Assembly (NCBI RefSeq): GCF_016862575.1
Contig: NZ_BONF01000039.1
Location: 1-64,000 of the forward strand
Origin: Catellatospora bangladeshensis
GTDB lineage: Bacteria > Actinomycetota > Actinomycetes > Mycobacteriales > Micromonosporaceae
Direction: 5' to 3'
Length of the DNA: 64,000 bases
Under the pieces are notes generated by a model, which saw nothing but the letters and a program-made list of their open reading frames with translations, did no database searches and was not told the DNA's origin. Positions 1 to 18,704 of the stretch are shown piece by piece. The translations under genes were made by a program, and so were the position numbers. Position 1 is the stretch's first letter. Each line of letters starts with the position of its first letter.

Positions 1-489
1 ACGGTGGTGGTCGAGGATTTGAACGTCGCCGGAATGCTGCGAAACCGGCGCCTGGCCCGGAAGGTCGCCGACGCCGGGTTCGGGCGGATCAGACGTCAGC
101 TCGAATACAAGGGCGAGTGGGCAGGCGGGGTCACCGTGAAGGCCGGCCGCTGGTACCCGTCGTCGAAGACCTGCTCGGAGTGCGGTGCGGTGAGAGCCAA
201 GCTGCCGCTGCACCTCCGGGTGTTCACCTGCGAACAATGCCCTTTGGTGATGGACCGTGACGCCAACGCGGCACGTAACCTCGCCGCCCTGGCGGCGGCA
301 GTCAAGACTGGTACCGGAGTGGCCGGAGACCAGGACGCGAAAGCGTCGAACCCCCGTGGAGCCGACCGTCAGACCCGCGCCACCACCCGACCGCGCAAGC
401 GGCCGGGTGGGCGGGCAGGTGGCGCAACCCCGCACCAGCGGACAGAAACGAGAGATCCTCGCCAAGCCGAAGCGGTCACGCTCCGGTGA
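1..489 (+). CDS. tnpB: TnpB-type RNA-guided nuclease, C-terminal part (gene begins before the window)
   Basis: The reading frame is open from base 1 and ends at TGA 487-489, so the N-terminus lies outside the window. The fragment carries the acidic VVEDLNVAGM segment (RuvC-II-like), a zinc ribbon (CSEC followed by CEQC about 30 residues later) and the RuvC-III signature DRDANAARN. These are family hallmarks of the IS200/IS605 and IS607 accessory protein TnpB, an omegaRNA-guided nuclease. The basic tail after RuvC-III is typical of actinobacterial copies. The codons seen are intact; whether the whole protein is active cannot be judged. No tnpA is visible. Confidence 0.88.
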   Translation, partial: TVVVEDLNVAGMLRNRRLARKVADAGFGRIRRQLEYKGEWAGGVTVKAGRWYPSSKTCSECGAVRAKLPLHLRVFTCEQCPLVMDRDANAARNLAALAAAVKTGTGVAGDQDAKASNPRGADRQTRATTRPRKRPGGRAGGATPHQRTETRDPRQAEAVTLR

Positions 490-10563: not shown

Positions 10564-12699
10564 TCAGCTCGCCACGTAGCCTTTACCGGTCCAGCGGTAG
10601 ATGGTGTGGTGGCTGGTGCCGCCGGCACAGTCGGGGTCGCAGTCGTTGAGCGCCGAGTCGACCTCGTAACGCCCGTCGCCGTCGGTGTCGACCAGCGAGG
10701 CGCTGTAGAACCGCTGGGCGTACTCCCCAGGCGGGGGCAGCGTGTCGAAGGTGTCGAAGCCCTGGGCGCTGGGACCAAGAATGATCACGCCGTTGTAGCG
10801 TCCCGGGTCGTAGTTGATGAACAGATGCCCGGTGCCATCGATGGCAGGGGCCGCAGGTGCGAGCCGGTACCAGGCGCCGGCCCGGTGCCGCCAGCGCACG
10901 TTCCCGTTGGCGCCGATGACGGCGATGAACGCTTCCGAAGCGCCCACCTCGGTCGGCATCGTGGTGATCAGGACGCTGTGGCCGTAGGACGGATGCTCGA
11001 AGTACACGCTGCCCGTGACCGTGCACGCAGCCTCGCACAGTTGCAGCTGGCGCAGCCGGCTGATGACCGGCACGGCCGGATACCCCGACAGCGACCAGAC
11101 CTCGTCGGCCACGACCCCGGCCGCTTTCGGGTCGCCCCAGTCGCCGGGCAGGAAGCCGGCGAGTTCGGCCAGGTAGTCGTCTGGGCAGGCGTCCAGCGGC
11201 TTGACTGCCGTGCGGGCGGCTGGTCGCCACTGGTCGAACTGCCACAGCTCCCGGTTCTCGTCGGCGAACGTGTCCTGCAGTGCGAGGTTGCGGTAGAGGC
11301 GGCCGCTGTCGGCGTTGACATCGCGGCAGGAGGGTGTCCACACGCCGAGCTGCTGCGGTCGTCCGTCGCCGCGCACGCTGAAGGCCAGCGGCCCGACGAG
11401 GGTGTCGGCGAGCTGGTCGGACAGGTAGAAAAGCAGGTCGGCGTACTTGAGGACGGCGTATGCCTGGGCGAGCTGGTGGACCAGGCGGTCGCCGCGCGCG
11501 ACGAGCTGTGCGGTGGTGCCGGGGTGGGCGCGGATCGCCTGCTGTTCGAGGGCTTCGAAGCGGGCGCCGAACTCGCTGCCTGGGTCGACGATGTCGGTGG
11601 CGCACGAGCCGACGGCGTCGACGACGGCACGCACGATCGTCTCCGGGTCGGCCTTCGGCCGGTTGAGCAGCTCCTTGCCCCCGCACTCGTACAACGCCTG
11701 CAGCATGGCGTTGATCAGAGGGTTGTCGCTGCCACCGACCGGGAGCTGGTCGAAGATGTAGGTGGTGACGTCGACCAGGACGGTGACGGCGTCGACGCTT
11801 CCGGTACCGGTCTGCATCACCGATCCGGGGGAGTCCGGGCGGCCGATCCCGACTGCGACCTCGGCCAGCGGTGGCAGCAGGAACGACTTGTCGGAGTCGA
11901 AAACGTCGTGGGCGGTGCGGTAGATGACTGCCTTCGGGCCGAACTCCTCCCGCCCTGCCCACGTCCACGCCCATGCGGCGTGGTCGGGCTTGAGCTGCAG
12001 GCGCTGGGTGAAGGTGCGGTTGTTGGCCACCCGGGCGGTGACGATCTCATCGCGGTCGGGTTCGAAGCAGACCCGCAGCGCGGCCGCTGACAGGTCCTCG
12101 TCCGGGTCGACGACACCGCGTACCCACGACGGCAGCGGCTTGCCGCTGCATGCGGGGGCGTCGACGCGTTTTCCGAGCAGCTCGCCGGTCCACTGGCTGG
12201 CCGATGCCGCCCAGTCCCAGAACGAGAAGTCCCGCAGCGAAGCCACCAGCGTGTCCCCGTCGACGCTCAGGCGCACGTCGGACACTCTCCACATTCGCAG
12301 ATCCGGGTCCCAGCGGGTCAGTACGGCTGCGGCGCGCTGCCGCGGGGACAGCTGCGGCACCTTCCACCGCACGGTGACCGGCTCGCGCAGCGGCTGGTCG
12401 TGTTCGACGCCGACCGGCTGACCGAACAACTCGCCGTCGTGCTCGCCGATGGCCGCGACCGGCAGGACGGTGATGAGGCTGCCGTAGGCCACCGCACCGG
12501 GCGGGATCTGCATCTCGACGTCGCCGACCTGGACGGTGCCGCCGTCGGGACCGACTTGGGTGCCGTCGCCGGTGACCTGCGGGGCAGGGTCGCGGGTCGC
12601 TGTGGTCGTGTCGCGTCGGGTCAACCACCAGGCGCCTGCTGCGCCGCCGACCAGGATCACGACTGCCGTGACCGCTGCCAGCAGCCGTCTTCTGCCCAT
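10564..12699 (-). CDS. Large membrane-anchored extracellular protein, unknown function
   Basis: 711 aa from ATG 12699 with AAGGAGA 8 bp upstream. It begins MGRRRLLAAV followed by a 17-residue hydrophobic anchor and WWLTRR, so the bulk is outside. Residues about 40-85 (DGGTVQVGDVEMQIPPGAVAYG) look like a ZU5-type beta domain. The middle has paired Cys in a secreted-protein pattern, and the end has VDTDGDGRYEVDSALNDCDPDC, an EF/dockerin-like Asp-rich loop that may bind calcium. Catalytic residues are not recognisable. The frame extends to 13389 but runs antisense through otsA there. Confidence 0.7.
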   Translation of the reverse strand: MGRRRLLAAVTAVVILVGGAAGAWWLTRRDTTTATRDPAPQVTGDGTQVGPDGGTVQVGDVEMQIPPGAVAYGSLITVLPVAAIGEHDGELFGQPVGVEHDQPLREPVTVRWKVPQLSPRQRAAAVLTRWDPDLRMWRVSDVRLSVDGDTLVASLRDFSFWDWAASASQWTGELLGKRVDAPACSGKPLPSWVRGVVDPDEDLSAAALRVCFEPDRDEIVTARVANNRTFTQRLQLKPDHAAWAWTWAGREEFGPKAVIYRTAHDVFDSDKSFLLPPLAEVAVGIGRPDSPGSVMQTGTGSVDAVTVLVDVTTYIFDQLPVGGSDNPLINAMLQALYECGGKELLNRPKADPETIVRAVVDAVGSCATDIVDPGSEFGARFEALEQQAIRAHPGTTAQLVARGDRLVHQLAQAYAVLKYADLLFYLSDQLADTLVGPLAFSVRGDGRPQQLGVWTPSCRDVNADSGRLYRNLALQDTFADENRELWQFDQWRPAARTAVKPLDACPDDYLAELAGFLPGDWGDPKAAGVVADEVWSLSGYPAVPVISRLRQLQLCEAACTVTGSVYFEHPSYGHSVLITTMPTEVGASEAFIAVIGANGNVRWRHRAGAWYRLAPAAPAIDGTGHLFINYDPGRYNGVIILGPSAQGFDTFDTLPPPGEYAQRFYSASLVDTDGDGRYEVDSALNDCDPDCAGGTSHHTIYRWTGKGYVAS

Positions 12700-12992: not shown

Positions 12993-14438
12993 TCAGGCTG
13001 CGGCGGCACAGGTCCAGCCCGCGGGCTGTTCGAGTCTGCTGAGAAAGTCGGCTGCCCACCGGTTGACGTCGTGGCGGCGCAGGTGAGCCCGCATCGGCAG
13101 CATACGGCCGGCCTGCTCGTCGCGGTCGGCGTAGGCGGCCGCCACGATCGCGTTCTTGAGCCCGTCGAGGTCGTGGGGGTTGACCGTCCAGGCCTGGCGC
13201 AGCTCGGCGGCGGCGCCGGCGAATTCGCTGAGCACCAGCGCGCCGGTGCCGTCGGTGCGTGCGGCGACGTATTCCTTGGCGACCAGGTTCATGCCGTCGC
13301 GCAGCGGTGTCACCGCCATCACGTCGGCTGCCGCATACAGCGCAGCCAGCTCCGCGCGGTCGTAAGACTGGTGTAGATAGTGCACGCACAGCCGCCCGAT
13401 GCCGGCGTGCACGCCGTTGATGCGGCTGACCATACGCTCGACCCGCTCCCGTAGCGCCTGGTAGTGGTCGATGCGCTGGCGGCTGGGCACGGCGACCTGC
13501 ACCATCACGGTATTGGCGGGTTCCAGGCGGCCCTCGGTCAGCAGCTCCCCGAACGCGGTCAACCTGTGCTCGATGCCTTTGGTGTAGTCGAGCCGGTCCA
13601 CGCCCAGGATCAACGTCGAGGGGTCGCCCAGCTCGCGGCGTATCTCAACGGCCCGGGCCTGCACTTGAGGGTCGTCGGCCAGCCGCTGCTGCGTGGCGAC
13701 GTCGATGGAGATCGGGAACGTCGCCGCGGTGGTGATCCCCGCGCCGTGCTCGATCTCATCGCCGGTGAGCTTCGCGCCCACCAGCTCCCTTGCCAGACGC
13801 TGGAAGTTGCGGGTCCCATGAGGGTGCTGGAAGCCGACGAGATCGGCGCCGAGCAGCCCACGTATGATCTCGTCGCGCAGCGGCAGCTGGCAGAACAGCT
13901 CGGCCGGCGGGAACGGGATGTGCAGGAAGAAGCCGATCCGCAGGTCCGGGCGCAGTCCGCGAAGCATGCCGGGGACCAGCTGCAGGTGGTAGTCGTGTAC
14001 CCAGACCAGGGCGCCCGGCGCGGCCAGGCGCGCCGCGGCGACGGCGAAGCGTTCGTTGACGGCGCGGTAGCTGTGTCGCCAGTCGCGGTCGAATACCGGC
14101 TGCTCGACGGCGTCGTGATAGAGCGGCCAGATGGTGGCGTTGGACTGGCCCTCGTAGTAGCGGTCGACATCCTGTTCGGAGAGCCCGACGGGGTGCAGGT
14201 GGATGCCGTCGTGGGTGAACGGGTCCGGGGCTGGGCCGGGCTGCCCGTGCCAGCCGATCCAAGCCCCGGCGTGCTGCTGCATGATCGGGTGCAGGGCGGT
14301 GACCAAGCCGCCGGGGCTGCGCTGCCATCGGCTGTCGCCGGTGGAGCTGGTGATGCGGTCAACCGGCAGGCGGTTGGCCAGTACGAGCAGGTCGTAGCCG
14401 GCGCGGCCGGCGGTCGGCGTGCTGGGTTCGGGTGCCAT
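12993..14438 (-). CDS. otsA: Trehalose-6-phosphate synthase (GT20)
   Basis: 481 aa from ATG 14438 (GGAGG 14 bp upstream). It transfers glucose from UDP- or ADP-glucose to glucose 6-phosphate in the cytosol. All GT20 signatures are intact: LANRLPV and GGLVTAL (donor loop), [48 protein letters not shown] (phosphate-binding Arg and Lys) and [14 protein letters not shown]. It follows the STAS gene at 14470 by 31 bp and is the last gene of the STAS/pseudoenzyme operon. A partner phosphatase is not adjacent; a GH65/HAD fusion lies at 46525. Confidence 0.93.
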
Positions 14439-14469
14439 CGCGTGGGCTGCCTCCAGACGGGGTCGCGGA

Positions 14470-14886
14470 TTACCGCATCGGATCGAGATGGCGGTGTCGC
14501 AGGCAGGGCAGGCGCAGACGTGCACGCGACCGGAGCCGCGCTGTCGGCGCCCCGCTGGCGCCACGTGGGCCTGCGGTGGCATGGGTGGTTCGCGCATGTG
14601 CCCGCATCGCGTTGAGGAGACCGGGGGACGGGTCGGCGATCGTCAGCGTGACGGCGCAGCGGTCGGCTTCGACCCTGCCGCGGATCAGCGCCGCGACGCC
14701 TGCGGCGTCGATGATGTCGACGGCGGTCAGGTCCAGGCTCAACCGCCGGGCGCGCAGCCGGTGCAGCGCGAGGCTGATGGCCTGGCCGAGCTGCCGGGCG
14801 GTGGCGGCGTTCAGCCGGCCGTGCGCGACCAGCTGCAGGCCGGATGACGTCGCTTGCAGCCGCAGGTGCAGACGAGAACTGTTCAC
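14470..14886 (-). CDS. STAS-domain protein (anti-sigma antagonist-like), no phosphoacceptor
   Basis: 138 aa from GTG 14886, which overlaps the previous stop as GTGA. The STAS fold is clear: LHLRLQATSSGLQLVAHGRLNAATARQL, then LSLDLTAVDIIDAAGVAALI. In SpoIIAA-type proteins the motif is D-S-S-G with the second Ser phosphorylated; here it is D-A-A-G (Ala62), so kinase control is unlikely. The C-terminal 25 residues are Arg-rich with CLRH. It is fifth in the operon, just before otsA. Confidence 0.82.
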   Translation of the reverse strand: MNSSRLHLRLQATSSGLQLVAHGRLNAATARQLGQAISLALHRLRARRLSLDLTAVDIIDAAGVAALIRGRVEADRCAVTLTIADPSPGLLNAMRAHARTTHATAGPRGASGAPTARLRSRARLRLPCLRHRHLDPMR

Positions 14887-15305
14887 CGGCGGCCGTCCAT
14901 TTCCTGGCCGCCGGAGCGGCGCGGGCGGGACCGCCCTGCGCACCTGGTGCCGGTGCGGTGGCGCCGCAGCGGCATCGCGTGACGGCGGGGCGGCCCGGGC
15001 AGCAGGTAGCCGACGTGATGGGCGTGCAGGGCCGACTGCACGCACGTGGAGCAGGCGTCCACCATGAAGGTGACGCCGTGGCGGGCTGCGGTCTGCTGGC
15101 ACAGCACGACCGCGGCGACACCGACGGCGTCGATGCGGGTGACAGCCGCCAGGTCCAGCAGCACCGCAGCAGGCGCGTACCGGCGAAGCAGTCCGAGCAC
15201 GACTTTCGGTAGTCGGTGGGCGTTGTCGGCACGCAGCGCGCCAACGGCGGTGACGCGCAGCTGCCGCTGCCGGCCGGACATGCGTAGCGCGAGGTCGTCG
15301 CTCAT
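14883..15305 (-). CDS. STAS-domain protein, no phosphoacceptor
   Basis: 140 aa from ATG 15305, coupled to the upstream pseudo-glycohydrolase by an ATGA overlap and to the next STAS gene by GTGA. Core: LRVTAVGALRADNAHRLPKVV, then AVLLDLAAVTRIDAVGVAAVVL. The phosphoacceptor position (second residue after Asp in D-S-S-G) is Val61. The region after residue 80 has FMVDACSTCVQSALHAHHVGYLL with a CxxC, then a basic tail. Partner proteins are not known; no anti-sigma kinase lies in the window. Confidence 0.8.
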   Translation of the reverse strand: MSDDLALRMSGRQRQLRVTAVGALRADNAHRLPKVVLGLLRRYAPAAVLLDLAAVTRIDAVGVAAVVLCQQTAARHGVTFMVDACSTCVQSALHAHHVGYLLPGPPRRHAMPLRRHRTGTRCAGRSRPRRSGGQEMDGRR

Positions 15306-16297
15306 GACCCCTCGCCGGTATGGTCTCCGGCGCTGCGCCGGCTGCCGCGTGCGGTTGTCGATGAAAGCCCTGCCGCCGCCGCGCGCAGGCGCAGCAGCCG
15401 CACGACGTCAGGCCGCCACGGCATGGCGACCGTGTGCTCGGGGTGGCGCGCACCGATGATCGCACCGACGATGGCGGCGACGGTCTGGGTCTGACCGCCC
15501 ATCATCAGCGCATAGCGGATCGCGGCGGTGGGCTCGTCGGGATGACGCAGAAACGCCGTCAGCGCTGCGGGCACACTGCGCAGGGCAGTGCGGTCGGCTC
15601 CGAGCGTCGCGGCGGTCTCCGCCGGCGCACTGCGGTGGCGCACCAGAGTCTGGACCGTGCGCAGCGCCGAGCGGAACTCGGCCGTGCGCATCTGGGCCGC
15701 CACCGCCGACAGGAACCGGTACTTGTCGGCAGGCGCGCCGGGCTGGCTGCGCACGGCCAGCGCCACCGCGGCCGCGGCCGCGGCGGCACCGTCCCGGGCG
15801 AGCAGATGGGTGTGCGTGATCCCCGCCGACCGGCGGCCCAGTGCTGCGGCTGCGGCCGCGCCGACGCCGGGCACCAGGCCCGCGGCGCAGGCGCGCACCG
15901 CGGCGACGCTGCCGAAGCTGCCATCGCCGTGGTGGACCTTAGGAGCGGCCTGCCACCAGCGGGCACCTGAAGCGACCGCGACCAGCACCCGGGCAGTGCC
16001 CGAACCCGCCAGATCCGGCCGGTCGGACGGCCACTCCTTCGCCAGCTCCGAGGCCAGGCCGTCGTCGCTGATCCGGCCGCCGTGGGCGGCCAGATGCTCG
16101 GCGAGCACGGTCATCTGCAGCGCGGCCGGGCTCGGTCGCTGCGGGCGCGGTGAAGTGCGCAGGATGACCTCCACCTGCGCCGGGTCGGGCACGATACGGC
16201 CGTTGAACGGGGCGGCGATCAGATCGGCGCACGCGGCCACCAGCAGGCAGCCGTGTGCGCGTCGCAGCTGCTGCTGCTGGTCGAGCGGGTATGTCAC
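15302..16297 (-). CDS. ADP-ribosylglycohydrolase-fold pseudoenzyme
   Basis: 331 aa from GTG 16297, coupled by GTGA to the gene before. The fold follows the ADP-ribosylglycohydrolase pattern: an N-terminal RRAHGCLLVAACADLIAAPFNG helix, QMTVLAEHL, HHGDGSFGSVAAVRACAAGLVPG and GGQTQTVAAIVGAIIGA. The catalytic Asp residues that hold two Mg ions in active members are gone: TDDT is SPAA (residues 56-59), and GGDTDT is GGQTQT (about 267-272). So it should not hydrolyse ADP-ribose but might still bind it (inference). It is third in a six-gene operon. Confidence 0.75.
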   Translation of the reverse strand: MTYPLDQQQQLRRAHGCLLVAACADLIAAPFNGRIVPDPAQVEVILRTSPRPQRPSPAALQMTVLAEHLAAHGGRISDDGLASELAKEWPSDRPDLAGSGTARVLVAVASGARWWQAAPKVHHGDGSFGSVAAVRACAAGLVPGVGAAAAAALGRRSAGITHTHLLARDGAAAAAAAVALAVRSQPGAPADKYRFLSAVAAQMRTAEFRSALRTVQTLVRHRSAPAETAATLGADRTALRSVPAALTAFLRHPDEPTAAIRYALMMGGQTQTVAAIVGAIIGARHPEHTVAMPWRPDVVRLLRLRAAAAGLSSTTARGSRRSAGDHTGEGS

Positions 16298-17685
16298 CTT
16301 GCGTCGATCTTCCTCGGATTGTCGTGCGGAGCCGGATGCCCGGCTGGACGCGTGCTGCCTGCGGTCGCGGGCTGGCGTCGGCGGTTGGCCTGGGCCGGGG
16401 CGGCAGCGCGAGCGCGTACGACGGCCATCAGCCGCCGGGCCCACGCCTCAGGGGCGGGTGCCGTCCCAGCCGAGCCAGCCAGGGGCACCGATGCGCTGAC
16501 ACCGGCCACCCGCGCGATGGCAGCGGAGAATGCCGCGGTGTCGTGCGGGTTGACCACCACCGCACCGGGCAGGTCCGCCCCGTCGCAGGTGAGCTCGCTG
16601 ACCACGACCGGGGCGCTGCCGTGCGCGGCGACGAACTCGTGCGCCTGCGCCGCCGTGCCGTGATGGTCGGGGGTGGCCAGGAGCGCGTCGCAGGCCAGGT
16701 ACAGCGACGTAAGCTCCCGCCGGTCCGGGGCTGCCCGCAGGTAGTGCACGACGGGCTGGCCGACCTCGGCGTATGTTCCGTTGACCTTCGCGATGAGGCG
16801 GTCGACGCGTTCGCGGTGGTCGTGCTCTGCCGGGGTCCGCGGCTCGCCGTATCCGACGTGCAGCAGCGCGATGGTGGCAGGGGCGGGGCGGTGCTCGGCA
16901 AGGAACCGGTCGAAGGCGACCAGCCGCTGCTCGACGGCCTCGGCGGGGTCCCAGCCGGCCACCGACAGCAGCACCGGCCCGGCCACCCGCAGCGCGGCGC
17001 GGATCTGCTGGGCGCGGGCACGCACCGGCCCAGACCGGGCCAGCCTTCGGATCCCCGCCGCGTCGGCGGGCATCGGGTAGGCCAGCACCCGCACCCGCCG
17101 GTTGCCGACGGCGATCTGCCCGTCACGCACCGGCAGCCCGTGCACCCGCCCGGCGAGGTCGAGCAGATTGGCCGCCGCACGCCGGTACGGCAGGACGACG
17201 ACATCGGCTCCCAGCAGCCCCGACAGCAGCTCCCGGTGCTCGGGCAGCCGCACGAACAGCTCGGCCGGAGGGAACGCGCTGTGCAGCTGCATCACGATGC
17301 CCAGGTCGGGCCGCAGCCGCCGCATCACGCCTGGCAGCAGCTGCAGCCGGTGCCCGTGGACCCAGATGACCGCCTGCTCGGCGGCAAGGCACGTGGCTGT
17401 GGCCGCCAGCCGACGGTTGACGGCCAGGTAGTCGTCGAACCAGCCCTCGGGAAACGCGGCCGGCTGATGGTGGCACAGGGAACGCAGCAGTGCCGCCGCG
17501 TGCGCCGCGTCAGCGCTGTCGGCCGTCTTGCCTGTGTCGGCGGCCAGCCAGGTGCCGGCCTGCAGGTCGGTATAGGCACGCAGGGCGGACAGTCCGGCAT
17601 CGACATGGTCGATGCAGTCGTCCGAGTCGGCTGGCGGAACCCGATCGGCAGCCATGATCAGCTGGTATCTGCCGGTGGTGTTCAT
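16294..17685 (-). CDS. GT20 (OtsA-like) pseudoenzyme
   Basis: 463 aa, colinear with the nearby OtsA, but its active site is erased. [12 protein letters not shown] is WVHGHRLQLLPG (residues 109-119), HIPFPP is [17 protein letters not shown] is SVAGWDPAEAV (241-251, losing the phosphate-binding Arg and Lys), and [14 protein letters not shown] is TPDHHGTAAQAHEF. Scaffold helices such as MRRLRPDLGI, PPAELF, RLPEHRELLSGLLGADVV and LTSLYLACDALLATP remain. A regulatory or scaffold role, perhaps by dimerising with OtsA, is inference. ATGA and GTGA overlaps couple it to both neighbours. Confidence 0.8.
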   Translation of the reverse strand: MNTTGRYQLIMAADRVPPADSDDCIDHVDAGLSALRAYTDLQAGTWLAADTGKTADSADAAHAAALLRSLCHHQPAAFPEGWFDDYLAVNRRLAATATCLAAEQAVIWVHGHRLQLLPGVMRRLRPDLGIVMQLHSAFPPAELFVRLPEHRELLSGLLGADVVVLPYRRAAANLLDLAGRVHGLPVRDGQIAVGNRRVRVLAYPMPADAAGIRRLARSGPVRARAQQIRAALRVAGPVLLSVAGWDPAEAVEQRLVAFDRFLAEHRPAPATIALLHVGYGEPRTPAEHDHRERVDRLIAKVNGTYAEVGQPVVHYLRAAPDRRELTSLYLACDALLATPDHHGTAAQAHEFVAAHGSAPVVVSELTCDGADLPGAVVVNPHDTAAFSAAIARVAGVSASVPLAGSAGTAPAPEAWARRLMAVVRARAAAPAQANRRRQPATAGSTRPAGHPAPHDNPRKIDAR

Positions 17686-18095
17686 CGCGTCACCCCGCCG
17701 AAGCCGGCCTCGCTGTCGTGGGAGATGCCCAGGGACAGGTCGCCGTCGGGGGTGATGACCTGCAGCACCCGGTCGACCTTCGCCAGCTTCAGGTTTCGGC
17801 GGGCCCTGGCCGACGGGGAGCGCAGTGCGACCATGCCGCCCTCGCGAATGGCGCGGCGGTGCGCGTCCAGCAGAAGCAGGATCCCGGCGGCGTCGATGAC
17901 GTCACACCCGGCCAGGTCGATCACCAGCTGCCGCGGGTGCAGGGCGAGCGCCTCGGAGAGCACCTCATTGACTCCAGGTGCTGAGCTGGCGTCGAGGTCG
18001 CCGCAAACCTGCACTTCGACCACCGGCACCGTCTGTGTCGTCTGCGCTGCGCGGCTGAATTCGTCCACCTTTACCTCCCTGCTGGCGGATTTCAC
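17682..18095 (-). CDS. STAS-domain protein, first gene of the operon
   Basis: 137 aa. The STAS core reads VPVVEVQVCGDLDASSAPGVNEVL, then LVIDLAGCDVIDAAGILLLLDAHRRA. The D-S-S-G phosphoacceptor motif is D-A-A-G (Ala70). Its stop overlaps the start of the GT20-like gene as ATGA. The start has GGAGGTAAA upstream. The promoter region, divergent from the STAS gene at 18342, carries TTGTCACACAACTGTCA (minus strand, 18149-18133), nearly identical to a copy before the divergent gene. Confidence 0.83.
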   Translation of the reverse strand: MKSASREVKVDEFSRAAQTTQTVPVVEVQVCGDLDASSAPGVNEVLSEALALHPRQLVIDLAGCDVIDAAGILLLLDAHRRAIREGGMVALRSPSARARRNLKLAKVDRVLQVITPDGDLSLGISHDSEAGFGGVTR

Positions 18096-18132
18096 CCTTC
18101 CCAGGTGGTACGGCGATCACCACGCAAACCCG

Positions 18133-18149
18133 TGACAGTTGTGTGACAA
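18133..18149 (-). promoter_or_regulatory. TGTCA-N6-TGTCA element before the STAS operon
   Basis: On the minus strand TTGTCACACAACTGTCA, two TGTCA half-sites one helical turn (11 bp) apart, 38 bp upstream of the ATG at 18095. Direct repeats with 11-bp period are typical of OmpR-type response-regulator sites. It matches the element at 18261-18277 at 16 of 17 positions. Confidence 0.6.
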
Positions 18150-18260
18150 GGCACCGCGCGTCACCACATCGCCGCAGGTGGCGGGCATCCAGTGACGTGG
18201 GCACAAGTGTCCGGTGGATGCTCGGCGGCTGGGTGCTGACACGCTGCGGCCGTCGCGGTG

Positions 18261-18277
18261 TTGTCACACGACTGTCA
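18261..18277 (+). promoter_or_regulatory. TGTCA-N6-TGTCA element before the divergent STAS gene
   Basis: TTGTCACACGACTGTCA, 64 bp upstream of the GTG at 18342 and in the same orientation to its gene as the copy at 18133-18149. The shared element implies co-regulation of both STAS transcription units. Confidence 0.6.
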
Positions 18278-18341
18278 TGTGATCGCACGGATGCCGCCAT
18301 GAACGGTTCCGATGCTCGGCCGGGTGAGGAAGGAGGGCAAG

Positions 18342-18704
18342 GTGATCGACGGCCACAGCCATGGCCTGGTAGCCGCCTGGCGCATTCCGGAGGTCGAGGT
18401 TTCCATCGTCGGCGACCTGGACGCCTGGTCGGCGGGCCACGCCAGCCAGGTGCTGGACGAGGCGATGCGGTTTCGGCCGGAAGTGCTGGTCCTCGATATG
18501 GCCAGGTGCCGTTCCCTGGACACCGCGGGAGCGTTGCTGATCGTGCAGACGCATCAGCGGATGCGCTATTCCGGTGGGTCGCTCAGCGTCCGATCCGCGT
18601 TGCCGCAGGTCGTGATGACCTTGCGGGCAGCCGACGAATACGGGGCATTGCATGTGGTGGGGGCCGGACAGCGGCTGCCCAGACACGCCGCCGACGGTCG
18701 CTGA
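18342..18704 (+). CDS. STAS-domain protein, divergent from the operon
   Basis: 120 aa from GTG 18342, with AGGAGGG 5 bp upstream; the ATG at 18312 has no such site. Core: PEVEVSIVGDLDAWSAGHASQVL, then LVLDMARCRSLDTAGALLIVQTH. The phosphoacceptor motif is D-T-A-G, so the second Ser is Ala62; Thr61 could in principle be modified. It shares its promoter element with the divergent operon and is closest in sequence to the STAS protein at 17682. Confidence 0.82.
   Translation: MIDGHSHGLVAAWRIPEVEVSIVGDLDAWSAGHASQVLDEAMRFRPEVLVLDMARCRSLDTAGALLIVQTHQRMRYSGGSLSVRSALPQVVMTLRAADEYGALHVVGAGQRLPRHAADGR

What the first reader, a model, noticed from the sequence alone, without database searches (positions are those of the whole stretch)
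12993..18704. Six-gene coupled operon of STAS proteins and two dead enzymes ending in OtsA
Going down the minus strand: STAS, GT20 pseudoenzyme, ADP-ribosylglycohydrolase pseudoenzyme, STAS, STAS, OtsA. The first five are joined by 4-bp overlaps and OtsA follows by 31 bp; a fourth STAS gene is divergent. STAS domains act in partner switching; pairing them with catalytically dead sugar-phosphate and ADP-ribose folds and a live trehalose-6-phosphate synthase suggests a sensor/regulator complex (stressosome-like) rather than a pathway. I know of no described system with this composition. The regulatory role is inference.
Basis: partly seen in the sequence, partly recalled or inferred. Interest (0 to 1): 0.88.

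Follow-up and report, generated by a model that had tools for sequence, protein, structure and literature searches.

The report
Retired enzymes in a stress regulon
In soil actinobacteria related to Catellatospora, a conserved operon pairs small switch-type proteins with two enzymes that have lost their active sites, apparently as part of a sensor-controlled stress regulon, which suggests that retired metabolic enzymes have been turned into signalling parts.

Summary
Confirmed: six coupled genes (STAS, dead GT20, dead ADP-ribosylglycohydrolase, STAS, STAS, intact OtsA) plus a divergent STAS. It is not a one-off. The dead GT20 occurs in 8 of 11 Catellatospora genomes (21 full copies) and in six further Micromonosporaceae genera, three of which keep STAS–dead GT20–dead ARH–STAS. 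The 20 dead copies in the tree form one clade; omega (0.17-0.24) is no higher than for OtsA (0.21-0.25). The full six-gene form is in 4 of 11 genomes. Its near form occurs 7 times in the genome, 6 at STAS/pseudo-GT20 loci, two in this window. STAS1-3 lack the phospho-serine, so classical partner switching is unlikely. Best reading: a stress regulon, probably envelope or osmotic, whose output is a non-catalytic STAS–pseudoenzyme complex tuning OtsA or the sensor. Complex formation, signal and regulator binding are inferred.

The parts
17682..18068 (-). STAS1, single STAS domain, 128 aa from GTG 18068 (ORF open to 18095); DAAG in place of the phospho-Ser motif
   Evidence: PF01740 50 bits; start chosen from ribosome-binding site and orthologues; alignment A3
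16294..17685 (-). pseudo-GT20 (dead trehalose-6-phosphate synthase fold), 463 aa
   Evidence: PF00982 191 bits; keeps 3 of 11 key residues; model matches OtsA structures, best 5k44 Foldseek E 3.2e-25, TM 0.63, mean pLDDT 67.6; omega 0.17-0.24
15302..16297 (-). pseudo-ADP-ribosylglycohydrolase, 331 aa, both metal motifs lost
   Evidence: PF03747 116 bits; SPAA/GGQTQT for TDDT/GGDTDT; poor model (pLDDT 50) still matches ARH3 first; omega 0.13-0.19
14883..15305 (-). STAS2, 140 aa, DAVG motif
   Evidence: PF13466 33 bits; omega 0.33-0.39
14470..14886 (-). STAS3, 138 aa, DAAG motif
   Evidence: PF13466 30 bits; omega 0.40-0.45
12993..14438 (-). OtsA, trehalose-6-phosphate synthase, intact by residue check
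   Evidence: PF00982 436 bits; TIGR02400 512 bits, below its 565-bit cut-off; 11 of 11 key residues
18312..18704 (+). STAS0, divergent STAS gene (likely GTG start at 18342 from orthologues, my reading); DTAG motif
   Evidence: PF01740 33 bits
18133..18148 (-). cis box TGTCACACAACTGTCA, upstream of STAS1
18262..18277 (+). cis box TGTCACACGACTGTCA, upstream of STAS0

Best explanation
The operon belongs to a stress regulon run by an OmpR-family two-component system with a Germane-domain lipoprotein (related to MtrA/MtrB/LpqB and CseB). The kinase senses an envelope or osmotic signal; the response regulator binds TGTCA-n6-TGTCA boxes and switches on its own locus and the STAS/pseudoenzyme operons. 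The products act without catalysis: STAS1, which cannot be phosphorylated at the usual site, pairs with the pseudo-GT20, joined in some loci by the pseudo-ARH and further STAS proteins. In this window the complex would bind and tune the co-expressed OtsA and so trehalose-6-phosphate supply, much as inactive Tps3/Tsl1 subunits do in yeast; in loci without OtsA it would act back on the sensor system. Shown: gene order, loss of active-site residues, one clade in the tree made, purifying selection, cis box, linkage to the two-component system. Inferred: which regulator binds the box, the signal, complex formation, and the effect on OtsA.
For: STAS1 directly precedes the dead GT20 in 19 of 21 full Catellatospora loci, window included, and STAS-linked dead GT20s occur in six more genera. 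All 20 dead GT20s in the tree fall in one clade, 100/99 support, within an OtsA subclade. omega of the dead genes is at or below that of OtsA in each of three comparisons. Box: GTCA-n7-GTCA in 31 of 35 intergenic regions against 0.2 in shuffles; TGTCANNNNACTGTCA 7 times in the window's genome, 6 at STAS/pseudo-GT20 loci, reversed control 0; upstream of 19 of 20 other Catellatospora pseudo-GT20 loci. Response regulator divergent from a STAS gene within 600 bp in 27 of 37 non-Catellatospora loci sampled, and 7 bp 3' of the pseudo-GT20 in 8 of 21 Catellatospora loci. Box and STAS1 presence associate over 354 genomes: 144 of 168 against 66 of 186. MtrAB senses osmotic stress, activates ectoine synthesis and binds GTnAc-type direct repeats (passages of PMC13189361). 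Inactive GT20 regulators of trehalose synthase in yeast: passages of PMC1769515.
Against: No binding, expression or interaction data. OtsA ends only 4 of 21 loci in the genus and was not seen at the dead-GT20 loci fetched from other genera, so it cannot be the general target. Two loci (L038, L039) have the dead GT20 without STAS1. No two-component genes lie in this 64-kb window; the link rests on the box. The regulators tested (L023, L030) score below the curated MtrA, MtrB and CseB cut-offs, so the signal may differ. Another OmpR-family regulator, the housekeeping MtrA included, could bind the box; its second half (GTCAt) departs from the published repeat. In the 11 genomes of the genus the pattern has 45 matches but the reversed control 12, and in G001, G003, G004 and G010 hits hardly exceed controls or do not (2 against 3, 2 against 1, 2 against 2, 2 against 2). 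Box is missing at L034. 66 of 186 genomes without a STAS1 match hold the pattern; relatedness is not corrected for.
Confidence: 0.45

Rival explanations
1. A partner-switching or stressosome-like module: the STAS proteins bind an anti-sigma kinase encoded elsewhere and release a SigB-type sigma factor; the dead enzymes are sensor parts that control this.
For: Most PDB sequence hits of STAS1 are anti-sigma factor antagonists; TIGR00377 (anti-sigma factor antagonist) is the top NCBIfam hit of all four STAS proteins, each below its cut-off; sigma/STAS systems exist in the family (Actinoplanes SipA/SsdA, passages of PMC10733313); an unphosphorylatable STAS could act as a permanent antagonist.
Against: Phospho-acceptor position is not Ser/Thr in 13 of 13 STAS1 and 84 of 86 close stretches; no kinase, phosphatase or sigma factor among the seven proteins. 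Partners elsewhere in the genome were not searched.
Confidence: 0.2
2. The pseudo-GT20 is a self-assembling structural scaffold for growth or spore morphogenesis, recruited by STAS proteins.
For: Arthrobacter OtsA self-assembles into networks and controls morphology under osmotic stress (abstract and passages of PMC5685639); in G026 one box lies before a YceG-family gene, a cell-wall enzyme family by recall.
Against: That OtsA is an active enzyme and its assembly is promoted by trehalose-6-phosphate, several of whose binding residues are lost here; the YceG link was seen in one genome only.
Confidence: 0.12
3. The GT20-like protein is a pseudo-glycosyltransferase with a new reaction, as VldE/ValL in validamycin synthesis.
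For: VldE structures are among its PDB sequence hits; R9, H154 and E369 are kept.
Against: Donor-side G22, D130, R262, K267 and D361 and acceptor-side Y76, W85 and R300 are all changed; it scores 193 bits against a mycobacterial OtsA and 24 or less against VldE-type chains.
Confidence: 0.07
4. The dead genes are decaying passengers kept by linkage to OtsA and STAS genes.
For: One truncated copy exists (G005:C36, about 150-170 aa).
Against: omega 0.17-0.24 and 0.13-0.19, no higher than OtsA; no stop inside any of the 21 full copies; most copies have no OtsA beside them.
Confidence: 0.02

Closest known systems
MtrAB-LpqB two-component system of actinobacteria
   Same: OmpR-type regulator, HAMP/HisKA kinase and Germane-domain lipoprotein-like protein in one operon; GTnAc-type direct-repeat box; published osmotic role of MtrAB (passages of PMC13189361)
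   Different: Best scores 215 of 300 bits (MtrA) and 218 of 450 (MtrB) in the two loci tested; lipoprotein about 190 aa; linked to STAS and pseudoenzyme genes
Yeast Tps3/Tsl1 GT20-fold subunits without activity (plant class II TPS by recall)
   Same: GT20 fold without catalytic residues, described as regulatory subunits of trehalose synthase (passages of PMC1769515)
   Different: No phosphatase-like domain found, bacterial, tied to STAS proteins and a two-component system; branches inside the actinobacterial OtsAs sampled
RsbR/RsbS/RsbT stressosome and SpoIIAA/RsbV partner switching
   Same: STAS domains; a stress setting is likely
   Different: No phospho-Ser/Thr in STAS1-3; no kinase, phosphatase or RsbR sensor among the seven proteins
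MlaB-MlaF
   Same: A STAS protein that holds a non-sigma partner and is needed for its stability (passages of PMC7367683)
   Different: Partner is an ABC ATPase; MlaB keeps Thr52
Streptomyces OsaAB/OsaC
   Same: Osmotic two-component system with a divergently encoded regulator thought to act on sigma B (one passage of PMC13189361)
   Different: Composition differs (recalled); OsaC was not compared here

Membership tests
Stressosome / STAS partner switching | Phosphorylatable Ser/Thr after the conserved Asp of STAS | tested here: not met
   Ala/Gly in 13 of 13 STAS1, aligned to the Ser of TM1442 and RsbV; window STAS2 and STAS3 have Ala; window STAS0 has Thr, its two orthologues Val
Stressosome / STAS partner switching | Cognate kinase (RsbW/RsbT) and phosphatase encoded with it | tested here: not met
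   None of the seven proteins matches one; partners elsewhere in the genome not searched
Active OtsA (GT20), operon-end copy | Conserved substrate and catalytic residues | tested here: met
   11 of 11; but TIGR02400 512 bits is below the 565 cut-off
Active GT20, upstream copy | Conserved substrate and catalytic residues | tested here: not met
   3 of 11
Active ADP-ribosylglycohydrolase | TDDT and GGDTDT metal motifs | tested here: not met
   Both lost in every ARH seen in the STAS loci; kept in 7 other ARHs of the family (L136, L138-L143) and in the two pieces of an eighth (L145); against a strict link, one ARH without the motifs (L137, G124) has no STAS gene near
MtrAB-LpqB | Curated model cut-offs for MtrA and MtrB | tested here: not met
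   Best scores 215 and 218 bits against 300 and 450, loci L030 and L023
MtrAB-LpqB | Germane-domain lipoprotein in the operon | tested here: met
   PF10646 42 and 52 bits; lipid anchor not tested
Tps3/Tsl1-like regulatory subunit | Binds and regulates an active trehalose-6-phosphate synthase | not testable with these tools
   Needs protein work

The most novel reading that the evidence does not exclude
In at least seven genera of one bacterial family, a signalling complex made of retired metabolic enzymes (pseudo-OtsA, and in some loci pseudo-ARH) held by unswitchable STAS proteins is produced on demand by a dedicated MtrAB-like two-component system through its own DNA box, and can set trehalose-6-phosphate synthesis: to my knowledge the first pseudo-OtsA regulator in bacteria.
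Probability: 0.35. Interest if true: 0.9.

Novelty: categorically new. Interest (0 to 1): 0.8.

Why it matters
It would show enzymes of stress metabolism being retired and reused as regulatory parts under one sensor. It gives a compact, testable regulon (7 box sites in one genome) that may link envelope or osmotic sensing to trehalose synthesis, and a possible role for STAS proteins that lack the phospho-serine. The controlling two-component system alone would be a variant of a known kind; for the STAS–pseudoenzyme composition I found no described counterpart: no held paper has two of the three key terms, and in looser searches I saw only listings, the top 15 of 27, 10 of 4,013 and 8 of 67 papers, none of which describes it by title or abstract start. 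The library is open access only.

Tried and rejected
Rejected: decay (selection test); artefact of one genome; classical partner switching. Score alone did not separate left-out divergent pseudo-GT20s well from OtsA, so STAS1 was used as the probe. AlphaFold of the pseudo-ARH was poor (pLDDT 50) and of the pseudo-GT20 moderate (67.6), so nothing rests on pocket shape. The tree may suffer long-branch attraction (warning). With one dead group kept at a time, four of five groups joined the Catellatospora OtsA/G080_C2 rows (support 67 to 100) and the Catellatospora pseudo group joined two other OtsAs (100, next branch 43), so the exact sister and strict single origin are unsure. W40 was dropped because the E. 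coli row does not read Trp there under the numbering used. In one search the numbering was off by one; one search replaces it. The script labels all 18 Catellatospora pseudo rows STAS-linked, though two (L038, L039) lack STAS1. GT20 rows came from STAS1 hits, 13 handles and the genus, not at random; ten of 59 rows were left out of the tree. GT20 pieces of G065 and G100 not in the table were checked later: the key residues they cover are intact but for one G22 change. Among 33 pattern hits in 30 loci of genus g29 only 12 lay near STAS or regulator genes, so outside Catellatospora the pattern is less specific or the regulon wider.
Full report
Observation. The first five overlap by 4 bp at each of four junctions and OtsA starts 31 bp after STAS3. 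Pfam confirms four STAS proteins, two GT20 proteins and one ADP-ribosylglycohydrolase (ARH) fold. From orthologues and a ribosome-binding site I place the STAS1 start at 18068.

Dead enzymes. Residues were read from an alignment with E. coli OtsA, using the substrate-binding list in PMC1769515 (passages) plus K267, which I equate by position with a donor-contacting lysine named for the mycobacterial enzyme in PMC6879718 (passages). The operon OtsA keeps 11 of 11; the upstream GT20 keeps R9, H154 and E369 only. W40 was left out as unreliable. The ARH protein has lost both metal motifs, TDDT and GGDTDT, in the window and in every ARH seen in related STAS loci, while 7 other ARHs of the family keep both. 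One ARH without the motifs (L137, G124) has no STAS gene near it, so loss is not confined to STAS loci. Structure models, moderate for GT20 and poor for ARH, still find OtsA and ARH3 as nearest folds.

Conservation. A protein search of 11 genomes of the genus found pseudo-GT20 relatives (58-100% identical) in 8; G007, G008 and G009 have ordinary OtsAs only. Named contigs show that the genus is Catellatospora. Twenty other full copies and the window give 21 loci in three settings: five with STAS1–pseudo-GT20–pseudo-ARH–STAS2 (four of them the whole six-gene operon ending in OtsA); eight beside a cluster that I read as ebo-like from its sequences (not searched), six of these with pseudo-ARH; and eight where pseudo-GT20 is followed after 7 bp by a response regulator, kinase and Germane lipoprotein. 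STAS1 precedes pseudo-GT20 in 19 of 21, by a 4-bp overlap in 17; in the other two my gene caller chose a later start. The order STAS1–pseudo-GT20–pseudo-ARH–STAS2 is also found in G026, G051 and G028, three other genera (the G028 ARH lies in two frames), and STAS followed by a degenerate GT20 in G108, in three genomes of genus g39 and in G088. G080 has a STAS-linked GT20 that is intact and lies beside the same two-component system, possibly an ancestral-like state.

One clade, under selection. In the 49-row tree all 20 dead GT20s form one clade (100/99), within an OtsA subclade that also holds the window OtsA. Every dead row has a STAS neighbour except L038, and L039 in the residue table, which are followed by the two-component genes instead. 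All 26 GT20s without a STAS neighbour in the table are intact, as are three further loci checked later in the residues they cover, but for one G22 change. STAS-linked but intact are G080 and the four operon-end OtsAs. Long branches make the exact sister uncertain. Pairwise omega for pseudo-GT20 (0.17-0.24) and pseudo-ARH (0.13-0.19) is no higher than for OtsA (0.21-0.25); STAS2 and STAS3 evolve faster (0.33-0.45) (three pairs each).

STAS proteins. The residue after the conserved Asp, which aligns with the Ser of TM1442 and RsbV and is the structurally equivalent phospho-site in SpoIIAA, RsbR and RsbS (passages of PMC7367683), is Ala or Gly in 13 of 13 STAS1 proteins. Among STAS stretches scoring 70 bits or more with my profile 84 of 86 lack Ser/Thr there; among weaker ones 36 of 57 (the profile was built from these loci, which favours this outcome). 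The divergent window STAS0 has Thr; its two orthologues have Val.

Two-component system and box. Probing all 354 held genomes of the family with STAS1 gave 168 with a match at E 1e-16 or better; of 394 genomes sampled from the class 2 matched at the stricter 1e-24, the window's own and one other of the same family. I fetched 37 loci outside Catellatospora that hold such hits, picked by hand over genera, some from one genome; in 27 a response regulator is divergent from a STAS gene within 600 bp, in 5 more the two-component genes lie elsewhere in the stretch, and in 5 they are absent or cut by the end of the stretch. Proteins are OmpR-type regulator, HAMP/HisKA kinase and Germane protein, nearest to CseB/MtrA and MtrB but below the curated cut-offs. 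Intergenic regions share a direct repeat with 11-bp period, GTCA-n7-GTCA, in 31 of 35 (34 such regions and the window's) against 0.2 in shuffles. TGTCANNNNACTGTCA occurs 7 times in the window's genome: two in this window, two at a STAS/two-component locus on C10, one each at the pseudo-GT20 loci on C19 and C47, and one elsewhere (C26); the reversed control gives none. It lies upstream of 19 of 20 other Catellatospora pseudo-GT20 loci, the exception being L034. Over the 11 genomes of the genus it has 45 matches against 12 for the reversed control, so single hits are not proof. Forty-four box sites aligned without gaps share further columns downstream, as a promoter would. Over the family the pattern is present in 144 of 168 genomes with a STAS1 match and 66 of 186 without; relatedness is not corrected for. 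In 30 loci of genus g29, 12 of 33 sites lay near STAS or regulator genes; several others preceded genes for small membrane-like proteins.

Mechanism. Shown: co-location, loss of catalytic residues, selection, box and two-component linkage. Inferred: the dedicated regulator binds the box; the signal is envelope or osmotic stress, by analogy with MtrAB (passages of PMC13189361); STAS1 and pseudo-GT20 form a pair; the complex acts on OtsA in this operon, by analogy with yeast Tps3/Tsl1, or on the sensor where OtsA is absent. The pseudo-GT20 directly before the two-component genes in eight Catellatospora loci favours feedback on the sensor; OtsA at the operon end in four favours trehalose control. 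I cannot decide between them.

Novelty. No paper in the held library had two of 'STAS domain', 'trehalose-6-phosphate synthase' and 'ADP-ribosylglycohydrolase'. Looser searches gave 27, 4,013 and 67 papers, of which I saw the top 15, 10 and 8 as listings; none describes such a system by title or abstract start. The library is open access only, so a description elsewhere is possible.

Noticed in passing
L193-L200, L203, L206-L212 (other Micromonosporaceae): A two-component system (regulator, kinase, usually Germane protein) divergent from a STAS gene, mostly without GT20 or ARH, may be the older core of this regulon; in L193 an 89-aa membrane-like protein without Pfam match lies between two STAS genes.
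   Followed up: partly
L023:3078-4037, L024:12497-13459, L147:6007 onward: A second, more diverged ARH-like gene without the metal motifs near six-gene operons, with its own box in L023 and L024.
   Followed up: partly
L134:2311-2326 and L192:9256-9271: Boxes before a YceG-family gene (G026) and a protein kinase gene (G088).
   Followed up: partly
L131 (G005:C36): A truncated pseudo-GT20 (about 150-170 aa) beside a full-length pseudo-ARH: one decaying copy.
   Followed up: no
L180 (G008:C8): A genome without pseudo-GT20 keeps the two-component system, three STAS genes and a box.
   Followed up: partly
L259, L262, L266, L269, L272, L274, L281, L284-L286: In genus g29 the box often lies near the start of genes for small (86-100 aa) membrane-like proteins of similar sequence.
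   Followed up: no
L137:7666 onward (G124): An ARH-like gene without the metal motifs and without a STAS gene near it.
   Followed up: no
window 4-489 +: ORF with a zinc-ribbon end typical of IS transposase OrfB (my reading, not searched).
   Followed up: no
window 10564-12699 -: Large unidentified ORF just downstream of the operon, with a membrane-like segment; no relative among the genes called in L023-L042.
   Followed up: no
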